A stretch of DNA of 41,916 bases from Kiritimatiellia bacterium (lineage in GTDB: Bacteria > Verrucomicrobiota > Kiritimatiellia > RFP12 > UBA1067): contig JAFSTA010000124.1 in assembly GCA_017450695.1 (NCBI GenBank), forward strand, positions 1 to 41,916. Direction: 5' to 3'. The notes under the pieces are model-generated. The model was not told the origin of the DNA, did no database searches, and was given only the letters and a program-made list of their open reading frames with translations. Positions within the stretch are counted from its first letter, which is position 1. The number at the start of each line of letters is the position of its first letter. The position numbers and the translations under genes were made by a program. Positions 727-31,861 of this stretch are shown here, piece by piece.

Positions 727-729
727 TGA

Positions 730-935
730 TTGAGGAAATGTTTAAAGACGGAAAGGATAAAAACGACACCTTATGAAAAATGGTCGCTCATTGGCATGTG
801 GTTGGGGGCAAGAGGCACGGTTTTATTGAGCAGACGAAGCCGAATGCGAAACGATCCAAGCTTCAGAAATACCGTCTCACGGCAAAAGGCCGCGAGTGCC
901 TTGTTGGTCTTGAATCCCGGCAACAATTAGGGTAA
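730..935 (+). pseudogene. Possible decayed winged-helix-type gene fragment
   Basis: No intact gene is convincing here. From ATG 780, one frame encodes about 51 residues ending with KLQKYRLTAKGRECL and stopping at 933-935. That segment looks like the last helix and wing of a winged-helix protein (compare 'YRLTEKGRELL' tails). A second frame is open from 730 to 930 but looks unlike a protein. The simplest reading is a broken remnant of a small regulator or of the C-terminal part of a larger gene. It could equally be chance coding. Confidence 0.25.
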
Positions 936-957
936 GATAGTGAGTGAAAGGCTGATT

Positions 958-2594: not shown

Positions 2595-2647
2595 ACGATG
2601 ATGACATGCCTGCGGGGTGTTGTAGAAACGGTTTTTTGTGTTTTTCA

Positions 2648-2719
2648 TGCAGAATGGGGGACTTTGCGCGATAGGGTCAAAACGATTTGTCGTATCGCGG
2701 CAGGTGTTGCCATTCTGCA
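2648..2719. other. Nested inverted repeat (structured spacer)
   Basis: TGCAGAATGG (2648-2657) pairs perfectly with CCATTCTGCA (2710-2719), and inside it CGCGATA (2667-2673) pairs with TATCGCG (2693-2699). The flanks TTTTC and GAAAA could extend the outer stem after small bulges. It sits between the Nudix stop and the lipoprotein gene. It could be a structured RNA, a small palindromic repeat or a weak terminator; no U-run follows on the plus strand. Confidence 0.55.
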
Positions 2720-2788
2720 AGAAAACAGCAAAAGAGAGGATTCCGGTTTGAGAGCAAAGCTCTCGACCATCTGAAATCAGGAGAAATC

Positions 2789-2926
2789 ATGAGAACGCAT
2801 ATACTTCTTTTTATCCTTGGTTCGCTACTGCTTGTTTGCGCGGGATGCGCAAGCAATCCTGAAGTGCCCGGACAGGTGTTTTCCGGTGTCTTGACAGGGA
2901 TCGGCGCCGGTCTGTCAGGACTCTAG
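2789..2926 (+). CDS. Tiny predicted lipoprotein
   Basis: A 45-residue protein starting MRTHILLFILGS, preceded by AGGAG at 2779-2783. A basic start, a hydrophobic stretch and the lipobox-like VCAGC give a signal peptidase II site, leaving a mature peptide of about 27 residues beginning CASNPEVPGQ and ending with a glycine-rich hydrophobic tail (VLTGIGAGLSGL). Small lipoproteins with this layout resemble entericidin-like or other tiny envelope peptides, but no family can be assigned. A longer in-frame start at 2687 would add 34 residues unlike a signal peptide and crosses the inverted repeat, so it is rejected. The ribosome-binding site and lipobox support a real gene. Confidence 0.65.
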   Translation: MRTHILLFILGSLLLVCAGCASNPEVPGQVFSGVLTGIGAGLSGL

Positions 2927-2941
2927 GGTAACTTGGTCTCC

Positions 2942-2996
2942 GCGTGAGATCCAAGTCGTGGCCGGGAAAATTCCTTTGTCGGACAATTTGAAAAAC
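2942..2996 (+). repeat. Degenerate intergenic repeat, copy 1
   Basis: AAAATTCCTTTGTCGGACAA starts at 2967 and continues to 2996; over 30 bases it matches 13796-13825 at about 25 positions. The bases before it, GAGATCCAAGTCGTGG then CCGGGAAA, resemble 32231-32254 (GAGATCAAAATCGTTG then TTCGGGAAA). It is therefore a member of a loose dispersed repeat found only in spacers. Confidence 0.5.
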
Positions 2997-3021
2997 AATC
3001 ATGCCGCTTTGGAATTTTTTA

Positions 3022-3134
3022 GACTTTCACCTTTTGGGTGAATCAGCTTTTTGTCGTAACGTGTGTGCGGGGGATCGCACAGCTGTCGCCACTTTCTCTG
3101 CGTACTCTGCGACCTCAGCGGTTCTGCGTGAGAA
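3022..3134 (-). repeat. Dispersed ~115-bp repeat, copy A (minus orientation)
   Basis: The reverse complement of this spacer aligns over its full length with 37125-37245 on the plus strand. Shared blocks include GCAGAGTACGCAGAGAAAGT, CGCACACACGTTACGAC and GATTCACCCAAA, ending in GGTGAAA. Both copies lie in non-coding DNA and are in opposite orientation about 34 kb apart. No transposase gene is near either. Confidence 0.85.
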
Positions 3135-3244
3135 TCCAAATGAGGAATCTAGGTTGACTGTCTTATTCACCTGATGGATGGGGATGCTATTGTGGCAGAT
3201 TCCAGCGGTTGCATTTCGGCATGGTGGGTGGAAGGAGAACGAAT

Positions 3245-5389: not shown

Positions 5390-5456
5390 TGACGGGGGCA
5401 TATCCCATACTGTTGAGTTCTGCGGAAGCACTGGGTACAACTGGTTTAACCTGCCA

Positions 5457-5492
5457 GTCTGATGTGGGGAAATAACCCTATCACACTCAGAC
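5457..5492 (+). terminator. Hairpin after the glycosidase gene
   Basis: GTCTGATGTG-GGG pairs with CCC-TAT-CACA-C-TCAGAC around the loop AAATAA; the outer six pairs GTCTGA/TCAGAC are perfect. It lies 68 bases after the glycosidase stop and just before the next promoter. There is no clean U-run, so it may be a 3'-end stabiliser rather than an intrinsic terminator. Confidence 0.4.
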
Positions 5493-5496
5493 AATA

Positions 5497-5560
5497 TTTC
5501 GATACAACGAAAAAATTTAATATTATCGTGATTGCATTTCGCTATAACGAATGATAGAAT
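5497..5560 (+). promoter_or_regulatory. Promoter with two palindromic operator-like sites
   Basis: TTGCAT (5532-5537) and TAGAAT (5555-5560) are separated by 17 bases. Two matching imperfect palindromes, TTTCG-ATACAA-CGAAA (5497-5512) and TTTCG-CTATAA-CGAAT (5537-5552), are 40 bases apart, close to four helical turns. The second fills the promoter spacer and the first lies just upstream, the usual layout for a dimeric repressor binding cooperatively. The repressor is not identified. Confidence 0.6.
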
Positions 5561-5596
5561 CTGTGCAAAACATCATTTTGAGAGGATGTACCTACC

Positions 5597-6805
5597 ATGA
5601 AACGCTCCTTTTATGTTGACCAGATCTTGCCCTTTGTCGACAAGGGGATTGTCAAGGTTTTTACTGGTATCCGAAGGTGCGGGAAGTCCAACATCATGGC
5701 CATGGTGCGCGATGTCCTTATAGAGAAAGGCATTCCTTCAAGCCAGATTGTGGAGGCCAATTTCGAGTCGAAGGCATTGGATTTTGTCAAGTCGTTGGAC
5801 TCGTCGGTCGAATATGTCAAATCGCGGGCCGAGGCGGTGGGCGGCAGAAGACTCTATTTGCTTTTCGATGAAGTCCAGGAACTTGAAGGGTGGGAAAAGC
5901 TGATCGCCTCGCTTCTCGTTGACTTCGACGTGGATATCTACATAACCGGTTCAAACGCGAAACTTCTGTCGGGAGAACTGGCGACGTATCTTGGCGGACG
6001 CTATGTGGAGATTCACGTGTTCCCGCTTTCATTTGGCGAGGCTTTGGAATGGCGTCGCGTTGAAAACCCGGACGTGTCTGCGCATGACGTGTTCCTACGC
6101 TACGTGCGCGAGGGGGGCATGCCTTTCATCTTCGACGCAAAAATACAAGGTACGCCGGCGATGGTCTATTTGACTGATGTATTCGGATCCGTCGTCGTGA
6201 AGGACATCGCCAAACGGCATAAGATAAGGGACATTGACCTGCTTGAAAAGATTCTCGTTTACCTCGTTTCTGAAGTCGGGCACCTGTTTTCCGCTTCTTC
6301 GGTCCAGAAATACCTCAAGCACGAGAAGCGCAGCATTTCGCTGGAGACCATGTACAACTATCTGAAGTATGCGGAAGAAGCCTGCTTGATTCTGCCGCTG
6401 AGGCGTAACGACTTGATTGGGAAACGTCTGCTTTCAAGCCAGGAGAAGATATACGTTGTTGACCATGGCTTCCGCGAGGCGTTGCTTGGGCGCAACCAGG
6501 CATCGATAGATCAGGTCCTCGAAAACATCGTCGCTGTCGATCTAATCAGGAGGGGATATTCGGTCACGGTCGGGATGGTAGGTGCGAAAGAGGTCGATTT
6601 TGTCGCCGAGAAGGATGGCGATAAGATGTATGTTCAGGTGGCGTACCTCATGCCGACGGAGGACATCCGCGAACGAGAGTTCTCGGCGCTTGAACTCATT
6701 CCAGACAACTATCCGAAGTATGTGTTGACGATGGACGAGATCGACTTTTCGCGAAACGGCATTCGACATCTTCGGATTGAGGAATTTCTGCTTGGGCACA
6801 TCTGA
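5597..6805 (+). CDS. AAA ATPase with DUF4143 domain
   Basis: A 402-residue protein of the AAA_14/DUF4143 family. Walker A is GIRRCGKS (24-31), Walker B LYLLFDEVQ with D91-E92, then YITGSNAKLLSGELATYLGG is the sensor region typical of this family. The C-terminal part carries EVDFVAEKDGDKMYVQVAY, the pattern of a PD-(D/E)XK nuclease-like core. These ATPases are abundant, patchily distributed and of unproven function. AGAGGA (5581-5586) precedes the ATG and the gene has its own promoter with operator-like palindromes, so it looks like a self-contained, separately regulated unit set between two carbohydrate genes. It ends 14 bases before the next start. The gene is intact, unlike the two other ATPase/nuclease genes here. 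Confidence 0.88.
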   Translation: MKRSFYVDQILPFVDKGIVKVFTGIRRCGKSNIMAMVRDVLIEKGIPSSQIVEANFESKALDFVKSLDSSVEYVKSRAEAVGGRRLYLLFDEVQELEGWEKLIASLLVDFDVDIYITGSNAKLLSGELATYLGGRYVEIHVFPLSFGEALEWRRVENPDVSAHDVFLRYVREGGMPFIFDAKIQGTPAMVYLTDVFGSVVVKDIAKRHKIRDIDLLEKILVYLVSEVGHLFSASSVQKYLKHEKRSISLETMYNYLKYAEEACLILPLRRNDLIGKRLLSSQEKIYVVDHGFREALLGRNQASIDQVLENIVAVDLIRRGYSVTVGMVGAKEVDFVAEKDGDKMYVQVAYLMPTEDIREREFSALELIPDNYPKYVLTMDEIDFSRNGIRHLRIEEFLLGHI

Positions 6806-6819
6806 AAAGGAGAACGAAC

Positions 6820-8574
6820 ATGCGAAACAAAGTTGTGGTTGCATTGTTTGCCGCGCTGACGGCGGAATGTGCGGTGGCGGCGCTGCAGCCGATGCCTAAG
6901 GGCGAACTGCCTGATCCGGCCGGGCTTGCGATCAACGCGGGGCGGCAGATTGCGTTTGCGAATCCGCTGCCGCGCATGCGGTGCGTCAAGGTCCAATGCG
7001 GCACGTACAACAATTGGGAACTGGCGTTCCCCGGCCTTCTGACGACGGCGGGTGCCGACTTCGGCAACGTGCTTTGGGACTTGCGCAAGGTGGTGTGGGC
7101 CGACCGGCGGCTCGTGTTCGTGGACGGGCGCACGCTCGTCTGCCAGCTCAACTGGATCCGCGCCACGTCCACCAGATGAAGGGTTACCGCCATTGGGAAC
7201 ATGACCTCACGAGCTTCCTCGACTTCATCCTCGACACGCAGCGAGCCGACGGGCAGTTCTACGAACTCCTCAAGCAGCTCGATGACTTCCACTGGACCTT
7301 CGTGCCACCGGACTGCCGCGTCCTCTATCCGGAGGACAACCAATCGCTCGTGCGCCTGGAACTGGAGGCCGACATCGAGTACCTGATGGTGGAGGGCTGT
7401 CTGCAGGCGTGGCGCGCGACGGGCGACGACGATTGGGCTCCGCCGCGCTCTGCCGCGCCTTGAAAAGGGCATCGACTACATGACAAGCGATCCCAAGCGC
7501 TGGGACAAGGCGCACGGTCTCTGCATGCGCCCCTATACGATCGACACATGGGATTTTACGAACGATCCGCTCTCTGGCTCCAACCGCTCCGTGATTCTCA
7601 CCGAACCGATGGCGATCATGCACGGCGACAATTCCGGTGTGTTTCAAGCCATGAACCAGCTGGCGTGGATCAACGAGCGTTTCGGAAACGCCGCGAAGGC
7701 GTCCGAATGGCGCTCGCGTGCCGAGGCGCTGAAGGCGAACATGTTCAAGTACTTGTGGAACGGCACGTTCTTCTGCCACCAGTTTCCGCTCAACTGCGAG
7801 CCGCTGGACGCGCACGAAAAGGAGCGGCTGTCGCTCTCGATGGCCTACGCGCTCAACCGGGGCATCCTGACGTTGGAGCAGAAGCGCGCCGCGGTGGCGG
7901 AGTACAAGGCGCGCCACAAGACGACGAAGGGCTTCTCCGAATGGTTCACGATTGACCCGGCGTACAGTCCGGCGTTCAAGGGCTACAAGCCCGGACAGTA
8001 CGTGAACGGCGCGCTCTCGCCGTTCACGGCGGGCGAGCTTGCGCGCGGCGCGTTCGAGTGCGGCGAGGAGGCGTACGGCTGGGACATCCTCGACCGCGTC
8101 GCGAAGATGGTGAAACGCGATGGCGGCAAGCTCTTCTTCCTCTACGATCCACTCACCGGCGAACCGCAGGGGCACGGACCGAGCGCGTGGGGCGCGGCGG
8201 CGATTCTGGCTGCGGTGGACGAAGGACTTGCCGGCGTGCAGGACCTCGACGCGCAGTACCGCGCGATCCGCTTTGCGCCGCGCTGGGCAGTGACACCGTT
8301 CAAGGAAGGCCGTTACCTCACGGGCTACGAGGCGTCGCACAAGACGGTAGATGTGCGTTGGATCTTCACCGACAAGGGATTCCGCTACCATCTGCGTAGT
8401 CCGGCGCAGTCGGTTCAGGCACACCTTCTCGTGCCATCCGGCAAGACGCCGAAGTCCCTACGCGTAAACAATGCCGAAACACCCTTTACGATTTCGACCA
8501 TCGGCGCGTCGCAGTATGTGGATGTTGTCGTCACACCACGGGGCGGAATTGCCGATTTTGAGGTCCTGTACTGA
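6820..8574 (+). pseudogene. Secreted six-hairpin glycosidase, frameshifted
   Basis: Three open segments join into one protein of about 584 residues. Segment one (6820-7179) starts MRNKVVVALFAALTAE, a signal peptide. Near 7140-7170 the frame moves by one so that HQMKGYRHWEHDLTSFLDFI continues in another frame up to about 7440-7463; a second shift restores the first frame, giving LEKGIDYMTSDPKRWDK onward to the stop at 8574. The RPYTIDTWDFTNDP and VNGALSPFTAGELARGAF stretches and the alternating helices fit an (alpha/alpha)6 barrel, as in GH78/GH63-like enzymes; the exact family is not certain. Two compensating one-base shifts about 300 bases apart could be real decay or assembly errors. As read, no full enzyme is made. 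The ribosome-binding site is AAGGAG at 6808-6813. Confidence 0.7.
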
Positions 8575-8593
8575 AGGAAAGTAAGCCCATGAC

Positions 8594-8797
8594 GGGGCAC
8601 CTAAAGGCGAATTCTTGAAATAGGGGACCTAAATAGCGGGTCAATTTTGGGTCACCTAAATGGAGAATCGGCGATTAGGTGAACCAAAATTTGACTTGAA
8701 AATGGTTCACCTAAATGCAAATTCTTGAAATAGGGGACCTAAAATACGGATTGATTCTGGGTCCCCTAAATTCAGATTCTTGATTTAGGTGACGCAA
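8594..8797. repeat. Array of GGGTCACCTAAAT-type repeats, 110-bp period
   Basis: The 20-base block ATTCTTGAAATAGGGGACCT occurs at 8611 and again at 8721, so the unit is 110 bp. Within it a 12-13-base motif recurs in both orientations: GGGGCACCTAAAG (8594), GGGGACCTAAAT (8625), GGGTCACCTAAAT (about 8650), its inverse ATTAGGTGAACC (about 8674), GGTTCACCTAAAT (8704), GGGGACCTAAA (8735), GGGTCCCCTAAAT (8759) and the inverse ATTTAGGTGACG (8783). No gene is present in 8575-8858. Multiple transposase-binding sites of an insertion-sequence end, or a multi-site operator, are both possible. Confidence 0.75.
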
Positions 8798-8803
8798 ATA
8801 CCA

Positions 8804-8832
8804 TTGCCCTTCTCACCATAAAATGATACAAT
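8804..8832 (+). promoter_or_regulatory. Promoter for the DUF234-type ATPase gene
   Basis: TTGCCC (8804-8809) and TACAAT (8827-8832) have a 17-base spacer. It lies directly after the repeat array and 26 bases before GTG 8859. It rules out ATG 8823 as a start, because that codon would precede the transcription start. Confidence 0.55.
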
Positions 8833-8858
8833 ACTCGCAAAAACTTGGAGGTATAGGC

Positions 8859-10302
8859 GTGAGGGATGCCTTCTTTGGACGTTCAGAACTGATTTCTGAT
8901 TTGTTGGCGCTGTGGCGTAAGCGAGTGTCATCGTTGGTGACATGTCGTGGGCGCCGACGGATTGGCAAGTCGACGCTTATCGAGCAGTTTGCCAAGCGTA
9001 GCGGAGCGCGCTTCATCAAGATCGAAGGGGTGCGTCCCCATGCCAAAATGACTTCCGCCGACCAATTGGCGAATTTTGCGAATCAACTTGCCGTGCAAAC
9101 GGGTGCGGAATCGACCCCGCCGCAGAATTGGTTGGCCGCTTTCGTTAGGCTAGACCGGGAATTGAGGGATACGGGACGGACTGTCGTTCTTTTGGACGAG
9201 GTTTCCTGGATGGCGTATGGTGATGCACTCTTCGCTGGAACGCTGAAGATCGCATGGAACAATTATTTCAAGAAGCATCCGAAGCTTGTCCTTGTCGTGT
9301 GTGGGAGCGTTTCTACATGGATAAAGGAGAACATCATCAATGCGGGTGCGTTCTACGGGCGTCGCTCGCTGGACATCGTCGTGCCTGAATTACCGCTTGC
9401 CGAGTGTGTGAAGTTCTGGGGGCAAGCCGCAGGGAGAATCGACACACGGGAAATCATCGACATTCTTTCTGTCACAGGCGGTGTTCCTCGTTATCTTGAG
9501 GAGATCGATCCTGGGGTCTCGGCTAACGAGAACATCAGGCGTCTTTGTTTTCGTCCAAAAGGAATCCTTCGTGAGGATTTTGACGAGATGTTCAACGATG
9601 TCATCACGCAGCTTCCATTGTTGACGGCCTCTGCGATTCGCGCATTGGCGGATGATGCGCTGAGCGCCTCGGAGGTCGCGCGTAAGATTGGCAAGAGGAA
9701 GGGGGGGGCACATGTCCGACGCACTTGAACAACTCGTCGAAGCAGGAATGGTCGCCGTGGACGAGGGCAAGAATCCGATGACGGGCGAGGATGCACGTGT
9801 CCGCCGTTATCGCCTGAAAGACAACTATTCTCGTTTCTACTTGAAATATGTTGAGCCGGAGAAAGTCGCCATAGACAGCGGGGCATATATGCCTGGTTCC
9901 CTTGAACAGTTGGATGGATGGCAGTCGGTTCTCGGTCTTGCTTTTGAGAACATGGTTGTCAACAACATTCCGGTATTGCTCGGTTTGCTTGGGATGTCTT
10001 CGTCGCTTGTCATATCTGCCGCTCCGTTCAGAAGGTCAGGTTCGCGTAAGGCGCATGATGGGGTACAGGTTGATCTTCTTCTTCAGACCAGGCGTTCCGT
10101 CTGTCTTGTGGAAATCAAGCGTAAGCGCGAAATCGGCAGGGAGGTAATTGACGATGTCGTGGAGAAAGTCCGCCGGCTTCCCAGGCGCAATGGCATCTCG
10201 GTACGTACGGCACTCGTCTATGAAGGGCATCTTGCGCCGATCGTCGAGGCGGACGGATACTTCGACGCGATCGTTCCGTTTCGGACCCTTTTGGGATTGT
10301 AG
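8859..10302 (+). pseudogene. AAA ATPase with DUF234-type nuclease domain, frameshifted in an 8-G run
   Basis: The ATPase part runs from GTG 8859 (TGGAGG at 8846-8851) with Walker A GRRRIGKS (31-38) and Walker B TVVLLDEVSWM. The frame then ends prematurely at 9728. The rest of the family, a winged helix (HMSDALEQLVEAGMV) and a PD-(D/E)XK-like DUF234 domain (VQVDLLLQ, CLVEIKRK), continues in another frame to 10302. Removing one G from the run at 9701-9708 joins them exactly as KRKGGHMSDALEQL, the expected family sequence. So this is one gene of about 480 codons with a one-base insertion in a homopolymer. It could be a switched-off phase-variable allele, a site of slippage, a true pseudogene or a sequencing error. 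Homologues are archaeal/bacterial ATPases of unknown role. Confidence 0.8.
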
Positions 10303-10334
10303 ATTTCAAACTGCACAAGGAAAACGAGGTGAAT

Positions 10335-13300
10335 ATGCGAATAATCGGCAGTATCGTTCTTGTGGTGTGCCTGTTCACGTCCTGTGTGTCGGCAGAAGGG
10401 AATAGGACTGCGGACGCGTTGTGGCGGTTGCCGCCGCCTGCGCGTTGGACGCTTGACGTGACGCGCCACGGTCCGCAGGTGGCGCCGAACACGCTGCCGG
10501 AGACGCTGGACGCGCTTACGATCTCGGCATGGGTGAAGCCCGCTGCGTTCGAGCGTTTCAACGAGATCTTTCGCATCGAGTCCGGAACCGGGCGTGTGCT
10601 CTTCTCTTTCCAGGAGAACGGGAAGATCCTGTCGCTCGGTTTGCACGGCACGAGCTATGTGGAGTGCGACGGACCGATTGACCCGGCGAAGGCGACGGAC
10701 GGCAAGTGGCACTTCGCCGTGGCGTCGCTGAACAAGGGCATGATGCGCGTGTGGTTCGACGGGGCGGAGCGGATGGCCGTGCCCCTGCCGGGCGGACGCG
10801 CCATCGTCGCGCGCGGTGTGCCGGGGTTCGTCGGGTCGTCAAGTGGGGTGAGTGAATTCTTCACGGGCGAAATCGCGGCGCTCACGATCGAGCCGTGTGC
10901 GACGACGGCGGGCGAGGTGCTGCGGACGTTCTCGGAGCAGTGTGCGGCGTATGGCGCGACGTTTGACGAGGCGGGTTTGCGCGCGAGCCTGGCGGCGCGT
11001 CGGGATGCGGTGTGCGAGTTCCGTCCGATCACGCCCGAACAGTGTGCCCGCGTGACGCCGGCGGAACGCGCCCGCGACGCGGCGTTCGACGCGTTCTGGG
11101 CGAAGCTGTTCCCGCAGGGAATCGAGGCGGCGACGCGCGAACAGCTCATCGCGGCGGCATCGGTTGACTGGCCTGCCGTGCCGGAGCGTCCAGTGCGCGA
11201 GCGGGTGGCGCCGTACCATCCGCCTGTCACGCCCGCGCCGCGTCAGCTCACGCGCGCCGAGGCGGAGGTCGCCGTCGAGGCCGACTGGCTGCGGCAGGCG
11301 GACGGCCGGTTCGACCCGGCGGACGAATTGGCGCGGACCGAGGCGCTGATCCGCCGGCTCAAGGCGGACGAGTCGGTTGTCACTCCCGGTCTCCGCGTGG
11401 CGGTGGCACAGGCGCGGACGCCGGAGGAGAAGATGTCCGCATACCTCGCCGTGCGGCGCGTGAAGCGCGAGGTGATGTTCGGCAATCCGCTCGTGTGCGC
11501 CGTGGAGCGTCTGTTGGTACTCGACTCGCCCAACCCCGAGGGCAGCGAATGGAAACACGAGACGCGCCACCGGCTCGGCTACATGGGCGTGCCGGGCGGG
11601 CAGTTGCTCGCGCTTGACGGACTGCGGCCGGATGCGCGCGTGACGCGCCTCGCGCCATACGCGCCGTTCGCCGGATCGTTCTGGCGTCCGGATGTCTCGT
11701 ACGACGGCACACGCATCCTCTTCTGTTTCAAGCCGCACAACGAGAAGACGTTCCACCTCTACGAGATGAACGCCGACGGCACGAATTGCCGCCAGCTGAC
11801 GAGCGGCATCTTCGACGACCTCGACCCGATCTACCTCCCCGACGGGCGGCACTACGTCTTCACCTCCACGCGCGGCCACACCTACGTGCGCTGCATGCCG
11901 CCCACGAACGCCTACTCCCTCATGCGCGGCACGTTCGGCGAGGACGACCTCTATTTCATCTCCGCGAACAACGAGCCGGACTACCTGCCGTCCGTACTGA
12001 ATGACGGTCGGATCGCGTACACGCGCTGGGAGTACACGGACAAGCCGCTCTGGCGTGCGCAGTCGCTTTGGACCGTCAATCCGGACGGTACGCAGGCCAA
12101 CACCCTTTGGGGCAACCAGAGCGTGTGGCCGGATGTGCTGAAGGACGTACGCGCGATTCCCGGAAGCTCACGGGTGATGTTCACCGGTTCGGCCCACCAC
12201 AACTGGTTCTCCGGTGTAATCGGCATCGTGGATCCGGGTGCCGGATCCAACTTCCCGAAGGGTCTCGCGAAGGTGACGCGCGAGCTGGCGTGGCCGGAGT
12301 GTGGCAACGGGCCGGAGGATCCTGGCGAATCAGCCGACTACCGCGCCTACGGGAAGTGGGACGCCTACATGAGCCCGTGGCCGCTTTCCGAAAAGGACTT
12401 CCTCGTCTCGGCGAGCCGCAACGGTAAGTTCGCGCTCTATCTCATGGACACGGACGGAAACCGCGAGCTGGTCTATGAGGGTGTGAACAACATCTTCCAC
12501 TTCGTGCCGCTCCAGCCGCGTCCGCGTCCGCCCGTCGTGGTGGACCGCGTGACGTTGCCGGCCCGCGCCGACCGCCTGAACCCGGCCGACGGCACCATCT
12601 ACTCGCCGGATGTCCACGAGGGTGTGCCCAAGAAGATGAAGGGACAGATCAAGTACCTGCGCGTGTGGTATCTGGAGCAAAAGACCTACACGTACTGGGA
12701 TCATCGTCCGGCACTTTCGACGGGGCCAGTGGTGAGCGGTCTGCAGACGGACGGCGTAAAGCGTTACCTCGGCGAGGTGCCCGTGCATGCGGACGGCTCG
12801 GTGTGGTTTCGCGCGCCGAGCGGACTCGCGCTCCATTTCCAAGCGCTCGACGAGCGGCACCGCGCACTCCAGACGATGCGCAGTTTCACGAGCCTTCAGC
12901 CGGGCGAGACGCGCGGCTGCACGGGCTGCCATGAGCGGACGTCGGGCACATCGGCATCGGCGTTGTCGGCAAACCGTGGCGCGTTCCGCGCTCCTGATGC
13001 GATCAAGCCCGCATCGTGGGCATCGCCGGGTGCGCGTACGGGCGTCGCCATTGGCTACAAGCGCGATATCGTACCGATTTTCCAGCGTTGCTGTTACGAC
13101 TGCCACACGGGAACGGGGAAGGGACGCGCGACCTTTGACCTCACCGAGGACGGGTGGCGTCCGTACATGTTGATTGTCGGCTGGCCCAGTTGGGCCAAGA
13201 CCGACAAGTTCCCGGGGCATTGGGCAAGCGTGGTGAAGGAGGGGTGGCCGACCATCGATCCGAAAGCACCGCCGCCTGGCTACGACCTCGCCGGTACGAT

Positions 13301-22946: not shown

Positions 22947-22976
22947 TTGCCTTTGTTGGCGGAGGTAGGGTATAAT
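22947..22976 (+). promoter_or_regulatory. Promoter upstream of the candidate ncRNA
   Basis: TTGCCT (22947-22952) and a perfect TATAAT (22971-22976) have an 18-base spacer. A start near 22983 gives a leader with a small hairpin (TGCGG/CCGCA, 22987-23003) before the large folded region. Confidence 0.6.
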
Positions 22977-23057
22977 GCAGTTGTTTTGCGGGAGAAATCC
23001 GCAGGGATGAGCGGTTGGAACGGTTCATTTCGCTCATGGTACACGTTTACGCTTACG

Positions 23058-23210
23058 GCGTTCGTAGAAAATGTAGGAAGTTTTCGAATAGAAGCGGTCG
23101 GTATGCGAAAGGTGCCCCACCTGGGGCGCGGCTTTTGTGTCAGTATTTCTATTCGGGCATCCTACAGCCTTCTACGAGTGCAGATCGAAAGATCGCGCTC
23201 TTTCTTTTTT
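23058..23210 (+). ncRNA. Candidate structured non-coding RNA with terminator
   Basis: Nested complementary segments form one long rod: P1 GCGTTCGTAGAA (23058-23069) with TTCTACGAGTGC (23170-23181), 12 pairs with two G-T wobbles; P2 TGTAGGA (23072-23078) with TCCTACA (23160-23166); P3 CGAATAGAA (23085-23093) with TTCTATTCG (23147-23155); then a large internal loop of about 14 and 11 bases; and P4 GCCCC/GGGGC (23114-23127) with AAAG/CTTT flanks. A terminator follows: GAAAGA/TCTTTC (23187-23204) and six T. A rod with a big internal bubble is the general shape of 6S RNA, but no conserved sequence was recognised, so identity is open. It is preceded by a promoter and followed by the DUF1848-HIRAN-helicase set. 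Confidence 0.6.
23187..23210 (+). terminator. Terminator of the candidate ncRNA
   Basis: GAAAGA (23187-23192), loop TCGCGC, TCTTTC (23199-23204), then TTTTTT (23205-23210). It has a short stem but a clean U-run. It would separate the ncRNA from the operon that starts about 190 bases later. Confidence 0.55.
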
Positions 23211-23394: not shown

Positions 23395-23499
23395 ATGGAA
23401 GGGCAATTAAATACCTTGGATCAGAACTCTGGTTCTTCCGGCGGGAGTGAAGAGGGAAACTGGGAAAGCATGACAACGATAGTGGCGAGGAGGTTGTAA
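23395..23499 (+). CDS. Possible 34-residue leader peptide
   Basis: From ATG 23395, preceded by a GGGGG stretch at 23384-23388, a 34-codon frame (MEGQLNTLDQNSGSSGGSEE...) ends in TAA at 23497-23499 that overlaps the next ATG as TAATG. A GTG at 23371 would add 8 residues. The AGGAGG used by the DUF1848 gene lies inside its last codons, so termination here could feed re-initiation downstream. The Ser/Gly-rich middle has no known match. It may be a real small protein or only a coupling leader. Confidence 0.35.
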   Translation: MEGQLNTLDQNSGSSGGSEEGNWESMTTIVARRL

Positions 23500-24524
23500 T
23501 GGCTGGATGGACTAAGGATGAGATTGTCATTGCCGACGGAACGAAAGTTCCGGCGCAGATGCCCGTAATCATCTCCGCGAGTCGATCAACTGACGTGCCT
23601 GCGTTCTATGCAGACTGGTTCATGGAACGGCTCAAGGCTGGTTACGTGAAGTGGTTCAATCCGTTCAACGGACTTCCGCTTTATGTTGGTTTCAAGGAGG
23701 CGCGTCTCATTGTGTTCTGGTCGAAGAATCCCGCACCGATGCTTGCGAATCTCGATGAACTTGACAAGCTCTTCCCAAACTATTATTTCCAGTACACTCT
23801 CAACGATTACTACGCAGAGAAGATCGAACCGCGCGTACCAGAGGTCGATAAACGTGTCGCGACATTCAAGGCACTGTCCGAGCGGCTCGGACGCGACCGT
23901 GTTGTTTGGCGCTTTGATCCGCTCATTCTGACGGATGCGCTCACCGTCTCAAGGCTACTTGAGAAAATTGAACGGCTGGGCGATCGCATCGCCCCCCTTA
24001 CGTCCCGTCTCGTGTTCAGTTTCATCGACATTGCTGCGTACAAGAAAGTAGCGGCGAACATGGCTCGCGGCGGCGTCCGGGCCCGTGAATTTTTGGCTGA
24101 TGAAATGGAGGAGATAGCTGCAGGTATCGGCAAGCTTGTGAAAGGGTGGGGGATATCTGCAGGGACGTGCGGCGAGATAAGGGATCTGGACAGATACGGC
24201 GTAGAGCACAACCGCTGCATCGATGACCGGTTGATAATGAAGTGCTTTTCGCATGACAGGGTGCTGATGGATTTCATCGGCGCGAAATGCGTCTCTGGCA
24301 AACCGCTCTTCGGTGAGCCGGATAAGTGGATTTTAGATGGGTACAGGAAAGACGGCGGACAGCGCAAGGCTTGCGGCTGCATCATGTCGAAGGACATTGG
24401 CGAGTACAATACGTGTCCGCATCTCTGCCACTACTGCTATGCCAACACGAACAGCGCAACGGCCTTGGCGAACAGGGATCGGCATCTCGCCTGTCCGCAC
24501 GCGGAGACGATAACGGGGAAGTGA
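23499..24524 (+). CDS. DUF1848 protein with radical-SAM-like cysteine motif
   Basis: A 341-residue protein matching DUF1848 throughout: VIISASRSTDVPAFYADWF (23-41) near the start, the VFWSKNPAPML segment, YYFQYTLNDY, and VVWRFDPLIL. The C-terminal end has CGC (292-294) and TCPHLCHYCYAN, giving C306-x3-C310-x2-C313, the spacing of radical-SAM iron-sulfur clusters, but placed at the C-terminus rather than the N-terminus. Family function is unproven; an Fe-S enzyme is plausible. AGGAGG (23488-23493) drives the ATG. It is the first large gene of a tight set with the HIRAN and helicase genes; the next ATG is 6 bases after its stop. Family call is firm, activity inferred. Confidence 0.87.
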   Translation: MAGWTKDEIVIADGTKVPAQMPVIISASRSTDVPAFYADWFMERLKAGYVKWFNPFNGLPLYVGFKEARLIVFWSKNPAPMLANLDELDKLFPNYYFQYTLNDYYAEKIEPRVPEVDKRVATFKALSERLGRDRVVWRFDPLILTDALTVSRLLEKIERLGDRIAPLTSRLVFSFIDIAAYKKVAANMARGGVRAREFLADEMEEIAAGIGKLVKGWGISAGTCGEIRDLDRYGVEHNRCIDDRLIMKCFSHDRVLMDFIGAKCVSGKPLFGEPDKWILDGYRKDGGQRKACGCIMSKDIGEYNTCPHLCHYCYANTNSATALANRDRHLACPHAETITGK

Positions 24525-24530
24525 GCCACC

Positions 24531-25058
24531 ATGGGTTTTAAGGATTTGTTCAAGAAAGTTGTAGGCGAGAGGCAACGCGAAGAGGTTGCTGCGACACCGG
24601 TTGCCCAGACCGAGGTCAAGTCGAGTGCCGTTGTTCAGGCGCATCCAGAACCTCAACGCGAACAGAATCCCCTTGTGCCAGAGACCGACCCTGTGAAACT
24701 GGCTCAAATGCGATTGGCCGCCCAAAGGCGTGTCAGAATCGTCGTGCGTGGGATAACAAAATACGGAAGAAGCGGATATTCGGGAATCTTCTCCCCCGGC
24801 GAGACGGTTTCTCTTGAAGGAGATCCTTCAAACCCATATGACGTGAACGCAGTGAAAGTGCTTCTCGCCGATGGGAGTATGCTTGGCTATGTCGCACGTG
24901 AAATGGCGGCATCCATTTCTCGAGAACTGGCAGACGGGTGGACGTTCAAGATCCGAATTTCCGAGGGGCCGTTCGTTGAAGACAAGTGGGGTCAGTGCGA
25001 ACTTGAGGTGATGGATAAGTGTCCTCCGGAACGAGGAGTGCAACATGGCGTTTCTTGA
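24531..25058 (+). CDS. HIRAN-domain protein
   Basis: A 175-residue protein. Residues 1-12 are an amphipathic helix (MGFKDLFKKVVG), 13-65 are a flexible Glu/Pro/Val-rich linker, and 70-160 are a HIRAN domain: VRGITKYGRSGYSGIF, then FSPGETVSLEGDPSNPYD, NAVKVLLADG and MLGYVAREMA. HIRAN domains (as in HLTF/Rad5) bind free 3' single-stranded DNA ends and steer helicases to stalled forks or damaged DNA. In bacteria they occur alone beside helicase or nuclease genes. Here the gene overlaps the helicase fusion by 14 bases, which strongly suggests a shared complex: HIRAN as DNA-end sensor, helicase as motor. The partnership is inference from position. Confidence 0.85.
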   Translation: MGFKDLFKKVVGERQREEVAATPVAQTEVKSSAVVQAHPEPQREQNPLVPETDPVKLAQMRLAAQRRVRIVVRGITKYGRSGYSGIFSPGETVSLEGDPSNPYDVNAVKVLLADGSMLGYVAREMAASISRELADGWTFKIRISEGPFVEDKWGQCELEVMDKCPPERGVQHGVS

Positions 25059-28000
25059 GAGAGTTGCACAGCTTCAAGCTCCGACCTTCACGGAGGTAGT
25101 TGGGGCGGCCGCAGCAGAGGTTCCGCGCCGAGAGTGGGCGGGAGCTTGGTCGGACTTGGAGCGTGGCCGCACGATTCTCGAAGACGAGGTCAGTCTCAAC
25201 AAATACCTCATAGCATATGGTCTCATGCATCGGGCAAAGCTCCTGCATATGCTCGATGCCATGCGAGGCGCATTCCGAAAACCGTCGGGACGGATGTCCA
25301 TTGTGGACTGGGGATGCAGCCAGGGGTTGGCATCGGCGGTCTTCATCGACTGGTTGCGTAGGAATCTCCCGGTAAAGAAGATTGTGTCGATTCGCCTTGT
25401 CGAGGTTTCCAATTCCGCCCGCCGCCGCGCGGTTCGGATTTTGAAGCGATACTCGGAAGTATACGAGAACGTCGAGGCGGACGTAGGCGAAATCCGCTGG
25501 GGTCGCGACGAGCCGATAACGTTTGGGAAACTGGATTTGCCCGCAGGAGTCCCGGTCGTACACCTCTACTCTAACATCTTGGATCTCGAGGCTGTGGATC
25601 GGCAGATGCTGGCTGATCTGTTCGAGCAATCGCGTCAGATGGCCGGAGTTCTTGCCCTATGCGTTAGCCCGAAATGCCCAGTGGCTGAACACATCTACGA
25701 TTTTTTCCGCCTTGTAGGCGGAGATGAGATGGTCGCATGTGATGTCGGCGAAATCAACTTCGAGAATCCCTACTCCCGCAAGTGCAGCTGTACCTACAAC
25801 GGTTGCGGATTCGTGATGCCAGCGCTTCGCGTTGCACCTGCGCAGGAGCCGATTGTACAGCCCATCATGGTCCATCCTGCCGCCATGCCGCCTGTGGAAG
25901 TCCTCGCCACCCCGGAGCCGGTACGCCCGCCAACCCCAGCCGCGCCGCTGCGTCCAGTTCAGCGGCGTGTCGTGAGGCGGAGAGGCGACAGAGGGCGAAC
26001 GTACGCGTTCGGGTTCGCCTCGACGCCGTTCCGCGATGCGATGCGGTCGCGTCCGGGCTGGTGGACGTTCAACCTCGCACTTACGCGGAACGGCATCCCG
26101 TGCGATGGCGGAATCGCTGGACTGAATCCTTTTCTCGCGGTTCTCAACAACATAATCGTCCGTGGCTGTGCCTCCTTCCCGCCGATCAAGGTCGAGGAAG
26201 CCCTCGCTAAAGCTCTCGACGTGATTCGCCGTGACGACGAATCGCTCGGAACGATAGACGTCAAGTGTCCTGCAGAAGTGACTGAAATCGTCGAGCGAAT
26301 CCTCAAGGTGTACGATCCCCGCGTCCAGTCTGAAGAGGAGGATGGCTCGTCCGACGAGGCTCTTGATGCGCGAGTGTTCATGCAGATGAGCGTTCCAATG
26401 ATGGTGGCCCGAGTTCAACATGCGGTGGTAAGAGCACTCATGACGGGGGCAGTTGACTGGTCTACTGGACGGGTGCTCATTCTGGCCTTGGAGCGGGACA
26501 TCCCGTGTGTCGCGCTTGCGTTGGAATCTCTCTCCGAACATTTCAATCACCTCTCTGAGCTGTGCGGGGCGGGCGCGGGCGCGGCGGCTCTTGACTACGA
26601 GGTCTCGATTGTCCGGGAAGTCGGCGATTTCGCAGATATCATCGGAAGCGCGGCGAACGGTGTCGAAGGCCGCTGCCGTCTCGTCGAGCGCGAGGAAGCA
26701 CTCAAGTCGGAATACGATATTTTCCTTGATGTATCCTTCTTCAACAATGAGGAGCAGACATCGTGGGAGGATGGCAAGGCCAGGGCGCAGGTCGCCGCAG
26801 AGCTGTTCGCCGTCAACGATCTGTCCAAGAGCAAGCCTGGGAACTTCCCACTATGCACAACGGAGAACATTGAGTATAAACCAGTCATCGAGTGGCTCAC
26901 ACCGGAGAAGTCGAGGCCTCTTCCCGCCATCAAACATTTGCGCTATTTCCTGCGCGAGATATTCCGCAAGAGCGACTTCCGCCCCGGACAGGTCCCGATC
27001 CTAGACCGTGCCATGCGCGGCCTCATGGTTATCGGTCTGCTTCCAACTGGAGGCGGCAAGTCGCTCACATACCAGTTGGCGGGCATGCTGCAGCCGGGGC
27101 TTGTCATGGTTGTCGCCCCCTTGCAGTCGCTCATGGTGGATCAGGTCAAGGGCCTGCAGCGGTTCGGTATCGATTCGTGCCAGTACCTCAACTCCTCACT
27201 CAGGGGGGCGGACCGCGATGCCGCCATGACGAAGGTTACCTCCGGGAACTCGAAGTTCGTCTTCATATCTCCGGAGCGTTTGTCGATCCCATCCTTCAGA
27301 TTCGCTTTGTCTGAAATGGCAGACAATGAGCTGTACTTCTCATATGGTGTGATAGACGAAGTGCATTGCGTATCCGAATGGGGTCATGACTTCCGTCCGA
27401 TGTATCTACACCTTGGCAGAAACATGCACGACTACGTCCTGATGAAGGACTCGTATGGTACGGAAGACAGACGTCTGATCCCGCTCCTCGGCCTCACGGC
27501 AACGGCATCGTTTGACGTGCTTGCGGACGTGCAGCGCGAGCTCGCTGGGCGAAATCGCGAAGAGCTTGCTCCGGACGCAATCGTGCGATACGAGAACACC
27601 AACCGCCTCGAACTCCAGTACCGGGTTGTCAGGGTTCCGAATCCCGGCGCAGGAAAGAAACGAGGGTGGGCGGACAGTTTCATGGTGCAGGTCAGATCGC
27701 TTGATTCCCAGATCGAATCACTCAAGGCGAAAGTGGCAAACGGGGATGTGTTGGCGAAAGCACAGTTGCAGGTCGCGGAGTCGCGGCGCAAGGAGATCGT
27801 CGAGGGAGACAAGAGTCAGAATGGTTGGAAGTGCCTCAAGGTCGCCCAGGGGGCGTATAGGAAATTTGTAAACGGGTTCAAGTTCGATGCCCTAAAATCC
27901 GAGATGGACAGCCTCACGTCCCTGTTCAGGAGACTCCTGACCGAGCAGAGCATAAAGCGAATAAAGCATGATTTCCTTGAGCGGGAGAACATTACGAGAG

Positions 28001-29646
28001 AGGACAACCCGGAAGTCTATGAAATTGTCGACAATTCAGATCTTCGGGTGAAATTCTCCGGCGAGGACTGGAAGACGCCCCGCCCCGACGGCTCCTATCG
28101 TGGTGGCGGACTCGTATTCTGTCCGATTAAGGGTTTCTCCGGGAGAACCCCGAGCCCGCTCTCTGTTGAAAACGTGTGGAAGAGGCTTGGCGGAAGTTCG
28201 CCCTCCAGCGCAAACGCAGTCAGGTGGTTTTCGGGAGAGATCAAGAACAACCCCCAAATGGAGTCCATACGCTGGCGTAACCAAGACGAATACATCGCCG
28301 AGCGTGCGGGGCTCATGGTAGCTACGAATGCGTTTGGCATGGGCATCGACAAACCCGACATTCGCTTCGTCTATGAATTAAGCCATCCAAAATCCCTTGA
28401 AGCCTTCGTCCAGGAGGCGGGGCGCGCCGGGCGTGACAGGAAGATGGCGCTGGCGACTCTGCTACTTTCCGAGTGCGACGATGTTGATCTTGACGTCGTG
28501 AAATGGTTTCACGACCAGAACTTCATCGGAGAGAAGCAGGAAGGCGAGGAACTCGAGAAGATTCTCAAGGATATCGACATGCGTCTTGAGGCCGAGGAGA
28601 CCGGCGAGGAGAGAATGGTAAAGGGATTCCTCGATTCGCTCCTCTTGACCGAACCTGGCACAGTCACCACCTATGTCTTGCCAGCATTATCAGATGGCAG
28701 CATGAAGGATATCCTCGAAAAGTCAATCTATCGGCTTTGCTGTATCGGTGTCATCGACGACGTTGAATGTCTCTATAGTGGGGACTCTCGCGGCGGCTCG
28801 ACACTTCGCCTACGAATGGTGCGCCGGACGGATGATGAGTACTACGACGTGCTCAAGAGCTTTCTCGCACGATATTTCACGGTGGAAAAATCCGAGGAGA
28901 AGGTTGCCGTGCTCAAGGCCGTGAAGATGGACGCGCCCGTCATCAAGAAGTGCCTTCTCTATCTCACTTCGTTTGTATACGAGAATGTCGAACGCAAGCG
29001 AGCCCGTGCCATGCTCGACATGCATGCCTTCTGCCTTCAGGGATGTCGGAAGCTCGCCGCGAACGAGACGTGGCTTGATGTCAACGAGGAGTTGAAGGAC
29101 TGGATATACTTCTATTTCAATTCCAAGTACGCCCGAACGGGAAACACGGTGAAGATCAACGGGAAAGACGTTCCATACTCCTTGGTCGACGACACGGATA
29201 GCGGTAAGAAGAAAGAATGGGATCGCAAACTGCTTGAAAAATACCTTGCGGTTGTAGAGGATCGCCTACTTGAGAACAACTCCCCGAAGGACAATGTGAA
29301 ACATCTTCAGGGGGCAGTTCGGCTCATTCGCCGTGCCGAGACAGGAGCAGCAAACCCGGTGCTGTCTCTGCTGAACGTGTTTTGCCTGTGCTTTCTCGGC
29401 TTCAGAGACAACGACCTGCTGTTTGACGAGTGCGTAAAGAGTCTCGCGCAAGATGGGTTCGGGCGGTTGCTGGTGACGGGACAGATGACGCCAGACGAAC
29501 TCTGGCAGAGTTTCAGCTGGTTTGTGGCGGAGGTGAAAAAACGTGCGCCTGACTGTCCAGTTGAAATCGTTGATGACATCGCTGGGTCGGCGCGGGTCGA
29601 AATGCACCTCGCTATGGTACGCGAGTTGCTTGCAAAACTTTCATAG
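25045..29646 (+). CDS. Methyltransferase-like domain fused to RecQ-type DNA helicase
   Basis: A 1533-residue fusion. Residues about 50-240 resemble a class I SAM methyltransferase (MSIVDWGCSQGLASAVF with D88-G90-C91-G94, acidic LVE after the next strand, and VVHLYSNILDLEA). Residues 260-330 are a Pro/Arg linker, 330-640 an unrecognised middle. The helicase follows: motif I TGGGKS (668-673), Ia APLQSLMVDQ, II DEVHCVSEWGHDF (771 on), III LTATA (817-821), V VATNAFGMGIDKPDI, VI QEAGRAGRD (1123-1131), all RecQ hallmarks. About 200 residues lie between motif III and GGGLVFCP (1020), against roughly 60 in ordinary RecQ; the extra part is charged and helical. The 370-residue C-terminus has no clear RQC or HRDC domain. 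GAGGAG (25033-25038) precedes the ATG. Likely an ATP-driven 3'-5' DNA translocase with modification or sensing activity. Confidence 0.87.
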   Translation: MAFLERVAQLQAPTFTEVVGAAAAEVPRREWAGAWSDLERGRTILEDEVSLNKYLIAYGLMHRAKLLHMLDAMRGAFRKPSGRMSIVDWGCSQGLASAVFIDWLRRNLPVKKIVSIRLVEVSNSARRRAVRILKRYSEVYENVEADVGEIRWGRDEPITFGKLDLPAGVPVVHLYSNILDLEAVDRQMLADLFEQSRQMAGVLALCVSPKCPVAEHIYDFFRLVGGDEMVACDVGEINFENPYSRKCSCTYNGCGFVMPALRVAPAQEPIVQPIMVHPAAMPPVEVLATPEPVRPPTPAAPLRPVQRRVVRRRGDRGRTYAFGFASTPFRDAMRSRPGWWTFNLALTRNGIPCDGGIAGLNPFLAVLNNIIVRGCASFPPIKVEEALAKALDVIRRDDESLGTIDVKCPAEVTEIVERILKVYDPRVQSEEEDGSSDEALDARVFMQMSVPMMVARVQHAVVRALMTGAVDWSTGRVLILALERDIPCVALALESLSEHFNHLSELCGAGAGAAALDYEVSIVREVGDFADIIGSAANGVEGRCRLVEREEALKSEYDIFLDVSFFNNEEQTSWEDGKARAQVAAELFAVNDLSKSKPGNFPLCTTENIEYKPVIEWLTPEKSRPLPAIKHLRYFLREIFRKSDFRPGQVPILDRAMRGLMVIGLLPTGGGKSLTYQLAGMLQPGLVMVVAPLQSLMVDQVKGLQRFGIDSCQYLNSSLRGADRDAAMTKVTSGNSKFVFISPERLSIPSFRFALSEMADNELYFSYGVIDEVHCVSEWGHDFRPMYLHLGRNMHDYVLMKDSYGTEDRRLIPLLGLTATASFDVLADVQRELAGRNREELAPDAIVRYENTNRLELQYRVVRVPNPGAGKKRGWADSFMVQVRSLDSQIESLKAKVANGDVLAKAQLQVAESRRKEIVEGDKSQNGWKCLKVAQGAYRKFVNGFKFDALKSEMDSLTSLFRRLLTEQSIKRIKHDFLERENITREDNPEVYEIVDNSDLRVKFSGEDWKTPRPDGSYRGGGLVFCPIKGFSGRTPSPLSVENVWKRLGGSSPSSANAVRWFSGEIKNNPQMESIRWRNQDEYIAERAGLMVATNAFGMGIDKPDIRFVYELSHPKSLEAFVQEAGRAGRDRKMALATLLLSECDDVDLDVVKWFHDQNFIGEKQEGEELEKILKDIDMRLEAEETGEERMVKGFLDSLLLTEPGTVTTYVLPALSDGSMKDILEKSIYRLCCIGVIDDVECLYSGDSRGGSTLRLRMVRRTDDEYYDVLKSFLARYFTVEKSEEKVAVLKAVKMDAPVIKKCLLYLTSFVYENVERKRARAMLDMHAFCLQGCRKLAANETWLDVNEELKDWIYFYFNSKYARTGNTVKINGKDVPYSLVDDTDSGKKKEWDRKLLEKYLAVVEDRLLENNSPKDNVKHLQGAVRLIRRAETGAANPVLSLLNVFCLCFLGFRDNDLLFDECVKSLAQDGFGRLLVTGQMTPDELWQSFSWFVAEVKKRAPDCPVEIVDDIAGSARVEMHLAMVRELLAKLS

Positions 29647-29657
29647 GAGAAAAATCC

Positions 29658-30239
29658 ATGAGCGAAAAGAAAATCGATGAAAAACTGGCAGAACTCTGTG
29701 CCGCGATCAAAGAGTTCGCGAGCCTTACCGACAGGACGAAGGCCGTTGAGAACCTCGCCAAGAAGATGGCAAGCGTTGGCGAGGAGCATCTGTCCGAGGC
29801 AGAACGTCGTGTGAAGGACATGTGTGCCACTTTGGTGGACTCCCTGAAAAGCGCGAAAACTGCACCAGAGAAGCTCGAGGCGGCTTCGAAGAAGCTGAAC
29901 GGAAAGGTCGACGAGTACGTTGACGAAATTGACGCGAAGCTGGCTGACATGGAGGGTCGCGTGTCAACATGCGTCCTCAAGCTCGGGCAGGTTGTAAAGG
30001 CAATGGAAAAAGGTGCTGCGGCGGCAGCCAAGTCAATTGAAGAGAAGATAGCCGAGATGGAGACTGCATCTTCGATTGATGGTTTTGAAGAATTTAAGAA
30101 AGATGTCGGAATCCGGCTTTCGGCGTTGGAAAAGAAGACCGAGGCCGTGAGTGGAAAGCTCGCAGCGGTGGACGGCACACTCAAGGAGATTAGGGAAATG
30201 ATAGCGAAGATCCCAACAAAGAGAAGCATATTCGGATAA
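29658..30239 (+). CDS. Coiled-coil protein of unknown function
   Basis: A 193-residue, highly charged protein made almost entirely of heptad repeats (IDEKLAELCAAIKEF; KLEAASKKLNGKVDEYVDEI; KLAAVDGTLKEIREMIAKI), with alanine/lysine-rich middle and basic tail KIPTKRSIFG. No catalytic motif, signal peptide or membrane segment. GGAG lies 8-11 bases before the ATG, which is 11 bases after the helicase stop, so it belongs to the same transcript. It could be a scaffold or structural partner of the helicase fusion; that is position-based inference. A phage-type or SMC-accessory coiled coil is another possibility. Confidence 0.75.
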   Translation: MSEKKIDEKLAELCAAIKEFASLTDRTKAVENLAKKMASVGEEHLSEAERRVKDMCATLVDSLKSAKTAPEKLEAASKKLNGKVDEYVDEIDAKLADMEGRVSTCVLKLGQVVKAMEKGAAAAAKSIEEKIAEMETASSIDGFEEFKKDVGIRLSALEKKTEAVSGKLAAVDGTLKEIREMIAKIPTKRSIFG

Positions 30240-30281: not shown

Positions 30282-31861
30282 ATGAGACCGATAGCCACAG
30301 ACACTGCGGATTTCCCGTCCTTGCGGAAGAGGGGGTGCATCTACGTTGACAAGACGGGGTTCATCCACCGCCTCGTCACGGATCCCAACACGAGGCTTTT
30401 CTTCCTCTCGCGGCCCCGAAGGTTCGGCAAGTCGCTGACAGTTTCCGCCCTGAAGGCGCTCTTCCAGGGGCGGCGCGAACTGTTCGGCGGGCTGTACATC
30501 GACGGGACCGACTGGAAGTGGGAGGCGTATCCCGTGATCCACTTCGAGTTCAACGACCTGGAGACTACGAGTGTGGAGACGTTCGAGAAATCGCTTGCCA
30601 CGCACGTGCGCGACCGCCTCGAAAAGGCTGGGTTCTCCTACGACGTGGCGGAGTCCCCGGCGGGTAACTTCGGCAGCGCCATCACATCGCTCTCAGCGGC
30701 GAACGGCGGCAGGGGCGTGGTGATCCTCATCGACGAGTACGACGCGCCGGTGGGGCACTGCCTCGACGATGTGGGGAAAGCCGAGGCGGTGCGTGACAGA
30801 CTCTCTGCGGTCTATTCCCAGATGAAGAACCGCACGGGTGAATCCGCTTCCTGCTGATGACCGGCGTCTCGAAGTTCACGCGCCTTTCTGTTTTCTCCGC
30901 GCTGAACAACATCGTTGATGTCTCGCAACGCAGGGAGTACGCGACGATGTTCGGCTACACGGAGGAGGAGCTGGAGGCGAACATCGAGGAGCATTTGCGT
31001 GAACATGCGGGGATCATGGGGAAAACTTACGGGGACTACCGCGCCGAGATGAGACGTTGGTACAACGGATTTCGGTTTTCGCCGGACTGCGAAAAAACCG
31101 TTTACAACCCGATCTCCGTCGCTCTGACGCTCTCGGAGAAACGTGACGGTTTCTCCGCCACGTGGGCGACGACGGGACGGCCGTCGATGCTGATGAACTA
31201 CCTGAAGCGCGAGGATGTGCTGCGCATTGACCCGGATGCGGTGCAGCGCGTGAGGTCGGCGGCTTTCGACGTGGCGGAATTGCGCGATCTGCAGCCGATC
31301 CCCATGCTTTACCAGTCCGGTTATCTTACGATAAGAGATTACAAGTGTGGCATGTTCACACTGGGCGTTCCGGACGAGGAGGTGCGGCAGGACTTGAATC
31401 TGCTGATGACCGGCGTGGCTGCTGACAAGAGCACTTACTGGGCATCGCGACTCGGCGACCATCTCCTCTGTGCCGAATGGGATGACTTTTTCGAAGGACT
31501 CCAGTCGCTCTACGCAGGGATGGTCTATGGATCGACGGAGCGGCGCGTCCACGAGAACTCATACGGGATTTGTCTCTCGTTTCTCCTCGCGAGTTGCGGA
31601 TTCCGCTTTACGATGGAGGCGGTGCTGTCAAACGGCCGCGCCGACATTGTGGCGGAGCATCCGGCGGAGGTGTGCGTCTTCGAGCTGAAGGTGGACGAGT
31701 CCGTCGATAAGGCTTTCGCGCAGATACGCGAAAAAGGTTACGCCGAGCCGTACCTAGCCGACGACCGCCCCATCTGGCTCATCGGACTTTCATTTGACTC
31801 GAAGACCCGCCACCTCTTTGATTTTGCTGCTGAACGATACGGTGGCGTAACAGAAACTTGA
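30282..31861 (+). pseudogene. AAA-ATPase-like / PD-(D/E)XK nuclease fusion, frameshifted
   Basis: The first part, from ATG 30282, has the family start TDTADFPSLRKRGCIYVDKT, Walker A RPRRFGKS (44-51) and Walker B VVILIDEYDAPV, then goes out of frame and stops at 30857. From there another frame continues the family perfectly (IRFLLMTGVSKFTRLSVFSA) to 31861, ending in a PD-(D/E)XK nuclease core, GRADIVAEHPAEVCVFELKV. One missing A near 30840 (GGTGAATCC for GGTGAAATCC) explains everything. It matches Pfam-type AAA-ATPase_like plus PDDEXK_9, a family of many-copy genes in gut bacteria with unknown role. TATACT (30268-30273) sits only 8 bases before the ATG, so a leaderless transcript is possible. 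A sequencing error cannot be excluded. Confidence 0.8.

What the first reader, a model, noticed from the sequence alone, without database searches (positions are those of the whole stretch)
22947..23210. Promoter, long nested RNA rod and terminator: candidate ncRNA just ahead of the helicase module
Three perfect or near-perfect stems (12, 7 and 9 pairs), a large internal bubble and a capped GC stem are arranged in strict nesting over 124 bases, then a terminator. Chance is unlikely. The shape is 6S-RNA-like, but a module-specific RNA is also possible because the DUF1848 gene starts 290 bases later.
Basis: seen in the sequence. Interest (0 to 1): 0.66.

Follow-up and report, generated by a model that had tools for sequence, protein, structure and literature searches.

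The report
Shared RNA leader of defence genes
The rod-shaped RNA is one of about 22 related RNA leaders in this gut bacterium's genome, many of them placed directly in front of different anti-phage defence operons, so one unreported RNA switch family may control much of the cell's antiviral arsenal.

Summary
A promoter-like site, a 124-nt rod with 12-, 7- and 9-pair stems and a GC cap, and an intrinsic terminator lie at window 22947-23210. It is not 6S RNA: no Rfam family matches, and this genome's 6S RNA is on another contig. It is also not specific to the helicase module. Covariance models built here find about 22 divergent copies in this genome, copies in 168 of 346 genomes of the class, and sporadic copies elsewhere in the phylum. 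The stems are kept through extensive compensatory change. Copies lie directly upstream of genes on the same strand. About 26 of 81 first downstream genes are DNA methyltransferases; none appeared among the families listed for 68 upstream neighbours. In this genome 13 copies lead defence-type loci: type I, II and III restriction-modification, MAD2, BREX, an Hma/DrmD-type helicase and the window's own operon. In most copies with a clear terminator, its 5' arm is also the 3' strand of the rod's closing stem, so the two folds exclude each other. Best reading: a new family of cis-acting leader RNAs gating accessory and defence operons by transcription attenuation. The signal is unknown and no expression data exist.

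The parts
22947..22976 (+). sigma-70-like promoter, TTGCCT and TATAAT, 18-nt spacer
   Evidence: consensus scan, 10 of 12; related copies have an extended -10 TGNTATAAT at a similar place; not shown to be active
22983..23057 (+). inferred 5' domain of the RNA: hairpins 22987-22991/22999-23003 and 23007-23013/23031-23037, then a short hairpin around 23049-23061
   Evidence: fold; a GGGAGAAATCC motif is shared with copies L041, L071 and L075
23058..23181 (+). rod: closing stem 23058-23069/23170-23181, stem 2 23072-23078/23160-23166, stem 3 23085-23093/23147-23155, cap 23112-23118/23123-23129
   Evidence: compensatory changes in homologues
23176..23210 (+). intrinsic terminator; its 5' arm 23176-23181 is also the 3' strand of the closing stem
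   Evidence: terminator hairpin -13.0 kcal/mol, 6-nt overlap; two-state energies -68.1 (terminator) and -64.9 (closing stem) kcal/mol
23395..23502 (+). possible 35-codon ORF whose stop overlaps the DUF1848 start (TAATG)
   Evidence: read from the sequence; not tested
23499..24524 (+). DUF1848 gene, first long gene behind the leader
   Evidence: Pfam E 4.5e-90; PADLOC RTasDUF1848
24531..25058 (+). HIRAN-domain gene
25045..29646 (+). 1533-aa DEAD/RecQ-like helicase, similar to DpdF and PsyrT models
29658..30239 (+). predicted coiled-coil protein, probably of the same operon
   Evidence: many weak low-complexity matches only
30857..31861 (+). PD-(D/E)XK nuclease-superfamily gene
   Evidence: PDDEXK_9, E 1.5e-12

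Best explanation
The element is a member of a new family of cis-acting leader RNAs of Verrucomicrobiota, above all the class of this genome (Kiritimatiellia). It works as a transcription-attenuation switch in front of accessory operons, many of them anti-phage defence operons. RNA polymerase starts near 22983 and makes the rod, whose closing stem (23058-23069/23170-23181) forms first. The terminator can then take over the 3' strand of that stem (23176-23181) and stop transcription at the U run. Something that holds the closing stem (a protein, RNA polymerase itself, a ligand or fast transcription) would block the terminator and let polymerase read into the DUF1848-HIRAN-helicase operon. Shown: conserved structure, position directly upstream of genes, mutually exclusive folds, enrichment for defence genes. 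Inferred: that the switch works in the cell, its direction, and its signal. Type B copies have no good terminator and probably act at another step.
For: Compensatory change: 164 both-side-changed cells against 50.5 in shuffles, 96.3% paired against at most 50% when slid (type A); 101 against 28.9 (window-like and type B). ORF start usually about 20-60 nt behind the 3' hairpin on the same strand. Terminator-like hairpin overlaps the closing stem by 5 nt or more in 62 of 86 measurable copies. Window: the closing stem is the best nascent fold, the terminator wins by 3.2 kcal/mol at full length. About 26 of 81 first downstream genes are methyltransferases against none listed among 68 upstream neighbours. 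Thirteen of about 22 copies in this genome lead defence-type loci. Copies in genomes of other classes also precede a type III methyltransferase and an SNF2-type helicase, by reading of the sequences.
Against: No transcript, termination or regulation was observed. Type B copies lack a good terminator, and hiding of their ribosome site was not clearly above shuffles. Many copies lead genes with no known link to defence. In the window 184 nt separate the terminator from the first possible ORF, more than in most copies. No ligand-like pocket of strictly conserved unpaired bases is evident.
Confidence: 0.64

Rival explanations
1. A processive-antitermination RNA (put- or EAR-like): the rod binds RNA polymerase and lets it pass its own and later terminators in long accessory operons.
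For: Stable conserved rod with few strictly conserved unpaired bases; stands before long operons such as BREX and type I and III restriction-modification.
Against: The built-in terminator that competes with the closing stem is enough for simple attenuation; no such family matches in Rfam.
Confidence: 0.15
2. An independent small RNA acting in trans, for example a 6S-like RNA that binds RNA polymerase; the genes behind it are incidental.
For: Own promoter-like site and terminator, long rod.
Against: Genome has its 6S RNA elsewhere; about 22 diverged copies, each just ahead of a gene on the same strand; cargo is strongly non-random.
Confidence: 0.11
3. A DNA-level palindrome, such as an integron attC-like site or transposon end, that moves gene cassettes; the structure is conserved because single-stranded DNA must fold.
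For: Diverse accessory cargo; fast-changing stems with a fixed shape; a few tandem copies (L083, L149, L169).
Against: Copies are scattered, usually one per contig rather than in arrays; promoter-like site, terminator and fixed orientation to the gene; the overlap of terminator and closing stem has no meaning at DNA level; no integrase among the families listed for the led genes, though none was searched for systematically.
Confidence: 0.05

Closest known systems
Attenuator-type riboswitches and T-box-like leaders with an intrinsic terminator
   Same: Structured 5' leader, mutually exclusive closing stem and terminator, many copies per genome before different genes (general knowledge)
   Different: No sequence or structure match to any Rfam family; ligand unknown; cargo dominated by defence and surface-protein genes rather than one metabolic theme
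put and EAR processive-antitermination RNAs
   Same: Structured leader RNA before terminators and long accessory operons (general knowledge)
   Different: No Rfam match to such a family; its own terminator is built into the fold
6S RNA (RF00013)
   Same: Long rod-like RNA with internal loops
   Different: No RF00013 match at the element; the genome's 6S is elsewhere; many copies, each leading a gene
Integron attC site
   Same: Imperfect palindrome with variable sequence and kept fold, linked to accessory genes
   Different: Dispersed, promoter-bearing, upstream of and co-oriented with genes; not in arrays

Membership tests
6S RNA (RF00013) | Match to the 6S covariance model | tested here: not met
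   no match in the window; the genome's match is at G000:C222:22569-22744
6S RNA (RF00013) | Binds RNA polymerase and templates pRNA | not testable with these tools
   needs biochemistry
Any Rfam 15 family | Score at or above a family's gathering cut-off | tested here: not met
   window and 31 homologous loci: only two tRNAs, outside the elements
Cis-acting attenuator leader | Lies in the 5' leader, directly upstream of genes on the same strand | tested here: met
Cis-acting attenuator leader | Terminator and closing stem share a strand | tested here: met
   62 of 86 copies by 5 nt or more, including the window; not met in type B copies
Cis-acting attenuator leader | Structure kept by compensatory change | tested here: met
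   the null does not model relatedness
Cis-acting attenuator leader | Signal-dependent readthrough in the cell | not testable with these tools
   no expression data
Riboswitch (small-molecule aptamer) | Specific ligand binding | not testable with these tools
   no ligand known; conserved core listed
Processive-antitermination RNA (put, EAR) | Makes polymerase resistant to later terminators | not testable with these tools
   needs transcription assays
Integron attC site | Cassette arrays with an integrase | tested here: inconclusive
   copies are dispersed with only a few tandem pairs; integrase not searched systematically

The most novel reading that the evidence does not exclude
One RNA switch family senses a single cue, for example an infection- or growth-linked signal acting on the elongating polymerase, and jointly gates many unrelated defence systems (BREX, type I, II and III restriction-modification, Hma/DISARM-like, MAD2-type and the DUF1848 module) as an RNA-controlled defence regulon.
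Probability: 0.35. Interest if true: 0.92.

Novelty: new variant of a known kind. Interest (0 to 1): 0.78.

Why it matters
How bacteria time the expression of a large, costly and potentially self-harming defence arsenal is largely open. A single structured leader family in front of many different defence operons would be a shared RNA-level control layer, and it gives a sequence handle to find uncharacterised defence loci (as in this window) by their leader rather than by their proteins. It also adds a widespread RNA family absent from Rfam 15.

Tried and rejected
6S identity: rejected. Plain DNA similarity search in 144 genomes found one good and one weak true homologue, so structure-based models were needed. 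Ribosome-site hiding in type B copies: suggestive in some (6 of 27 at 0.05 or below), not clearly above shuffles. Phage carriage: five exact patterns found nothing in IMG/VR. PADLOC hits to generic kinase models among upstream neighbours were not counted as defence. Literature searches gave no earlier description, within an open-access subset only.

Full report
At window 22947-22976 lies a promoter-like site. At 23058-23181 lies a 124-nt rod with stems of 12, 7 and 9 pairs and a GC cap, and at 23176-23210 an intrinsic terminator. The rod folds at -53.1 kcal/mol, z = -6.15, with no shuffle of 200 as stable.

Identity. Rfam gives nothing for the window at gathering score, and nothing for the region up to E 5. 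The genome's 6S RNA is on another contig, C222. By plain DNA search the element is single-copy, with one clear relative in another genus of the family. That relative lies just ahead of a restriction-modification operon: a Dam-type methyltransferase, a second protein that I read as an AlwI-like nuclease, and a third that I read as RadC-like; the last two were not scanned.

A covariance model from three sequences found copies in 76 of 115 genomes of the family. The copies share a fixed plan: 5' hairpin, linker, rod with closing stem, two inner stems and a GCGCC cap, then a second hairpin with a U-rich tract. An independent pattern made only from the 3' hairpin of the commonest type returned 22 stretches in GTDB genomes, whose titles name Kiritimatiellae, Lentisphaerae or Verrucomicrobia where they name a group. 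Nearly all of these carry the rod.

Conservation. On 24 type A copies 96.3% of cells pair and 164 cells show change on both sides, against 50.5 in shuffles; sliding the partner drops pairing to 50% or less. On 19 window-like and type B copies the figures are 91.2% and 101 against 28.9. The closing stem and third stem take nearly every pair type. The shuffles do not model relatedness, so a tree-aware test remains to be done, but the size of the effect and the slid controls leave little doubt.

Range. Model R3 hits 168 of 346 genomes of the class at E 1e-4, in 44 of 121 genera, with only seven candidates scored per genome. In a phylum-wide draw it hits 74 of 388 at 1e-6, including 13 genomes outside the class. 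Distant copies that were read show the same plan, most with a terminator and an ORF close behind. Model E-values are rough. A deep search of this genome with R2 and R3 gives about 22 copies whose folds or flanking genes were inspected; some weaker matches were not examined. The class name is inferred from the organism titles of close matches; the genome itself is unnamed.

Where the copies lie. Start codons usually follow the 3' hairpin by about 20-60 nt on the same strand. Of 81 first downstream proteins about 26 are DNA methyltransferases: 13 EcoRI-type, 9 MAD2/N6-type, 2 D12 and 2 N6_N4 (overlap between classes resolved by reading the sequences). Others are restriction enzymes, helicases, lipoproteins and signal-peptide proteins. 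Among 68 upstream neighbours no methyltransferase appears in the listed families (only the first 25 families are shown), giving Fisher p about 2e-8.

In this genome copies lead the following loci. C258: type III-like methyltransferase. C163: HsdM. C42, second copy: HsdM with what I read as HsdS and HsdR behind it. C181: type ISP/IIG. C223: type III methyltransferase. C220: an operon with an N6_N4 methyltransferase. C177 and C24: EcoRI-type methyltransferases. C211: MAD2-type. C106: helicase, with a methyltransferase further on. C131: BrxA with a BREX-like gene order behind it. C261: HmaA/DrmD-type helicase. The thirteenth is the window. Twelve of 22 with library support, at an assumed 3-5% background, has p of about 1e-10 or less. 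The converse is partial: roughly half of the methyltransferase loci found by three Pfam families have the leader at the head of the operon.

Mechanism. In 62 of 86 copies where it could be measured, the best terminator-like hairpin before the U run overlaps the 3' strand of the closing stem by 5 nt or more, and 53 copies have a hairpin of -6 kcal/mol or better. In the window the shared strand is GAGUGC, 23176-23181. Before the terminator's 3' arm is made, the 12-pair closing stem is the best fold. With the full sequence the terminator fold wins by 3.2 kcal/mol, -68.1 against -64.9. That is the logic of an attenuator: whatever holds the closing stem turns the operon on. This is inference from anatomy; no transcript was seen. 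Type B copies lack the terminator and may act on translation, but the pairing of their pyrimidine arm with the ribosome site was not clearly above shuffles.

The window operon. DUF1848, HIRAN, a 1533-aa DpdF/PsyrT-like helicase, a coiled-coil protein and a PD-(D/E)XK protein fit a defence module, and the leader family supports that reading by association. It is not proof.

Novelty. Nothing in Rfam 15 and nothing in the papers that could be searched describes this family. A large published set of candidate structured RNAs from human microbiomes (PMC8040213) was listed by a search but not checked sequence by sequence, so an unnamed earlier listing cannot be excluded.

Noticed in passing
L083 2835-4996 and L149 148-2140: Tandem pairs of the element about 2 kb apart in the same orientation; in L083 each copy has its own downstream gene.
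   Followed up: partly
L169 (G088:C8), L129 (G221:C43), L133 and L134 (G249): Identical or near-identical copies 3.6 kb, 12.8 kb and about 1 Mb apart in one genome, as if recently duplicated.
   Followed up: no
type B copies, e.g. L042, L043, L045, L056: Type B copies sit behind a PknB-like kinase gene (12 of 68 upstream neighbours) and ahead of lipoprotein genes; a further conserved block lies upstream of their promoter.
   Followed up: no
window 23395-23502: A 35-codon ORF overlaps the DUF1848 start by TAATG, which suggests translational coupling.
   Followed up: no
L224 (G000:C131) 643-10603: BREX-like operon (BrxA by model, then genes of about 1188 and 1162 aa) with a copy of the leader at its head.
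   Followed up: partly
promoters of type A and type B copies: Many carry an extended -10 box TGNTATAAT.
   Followed up: partly
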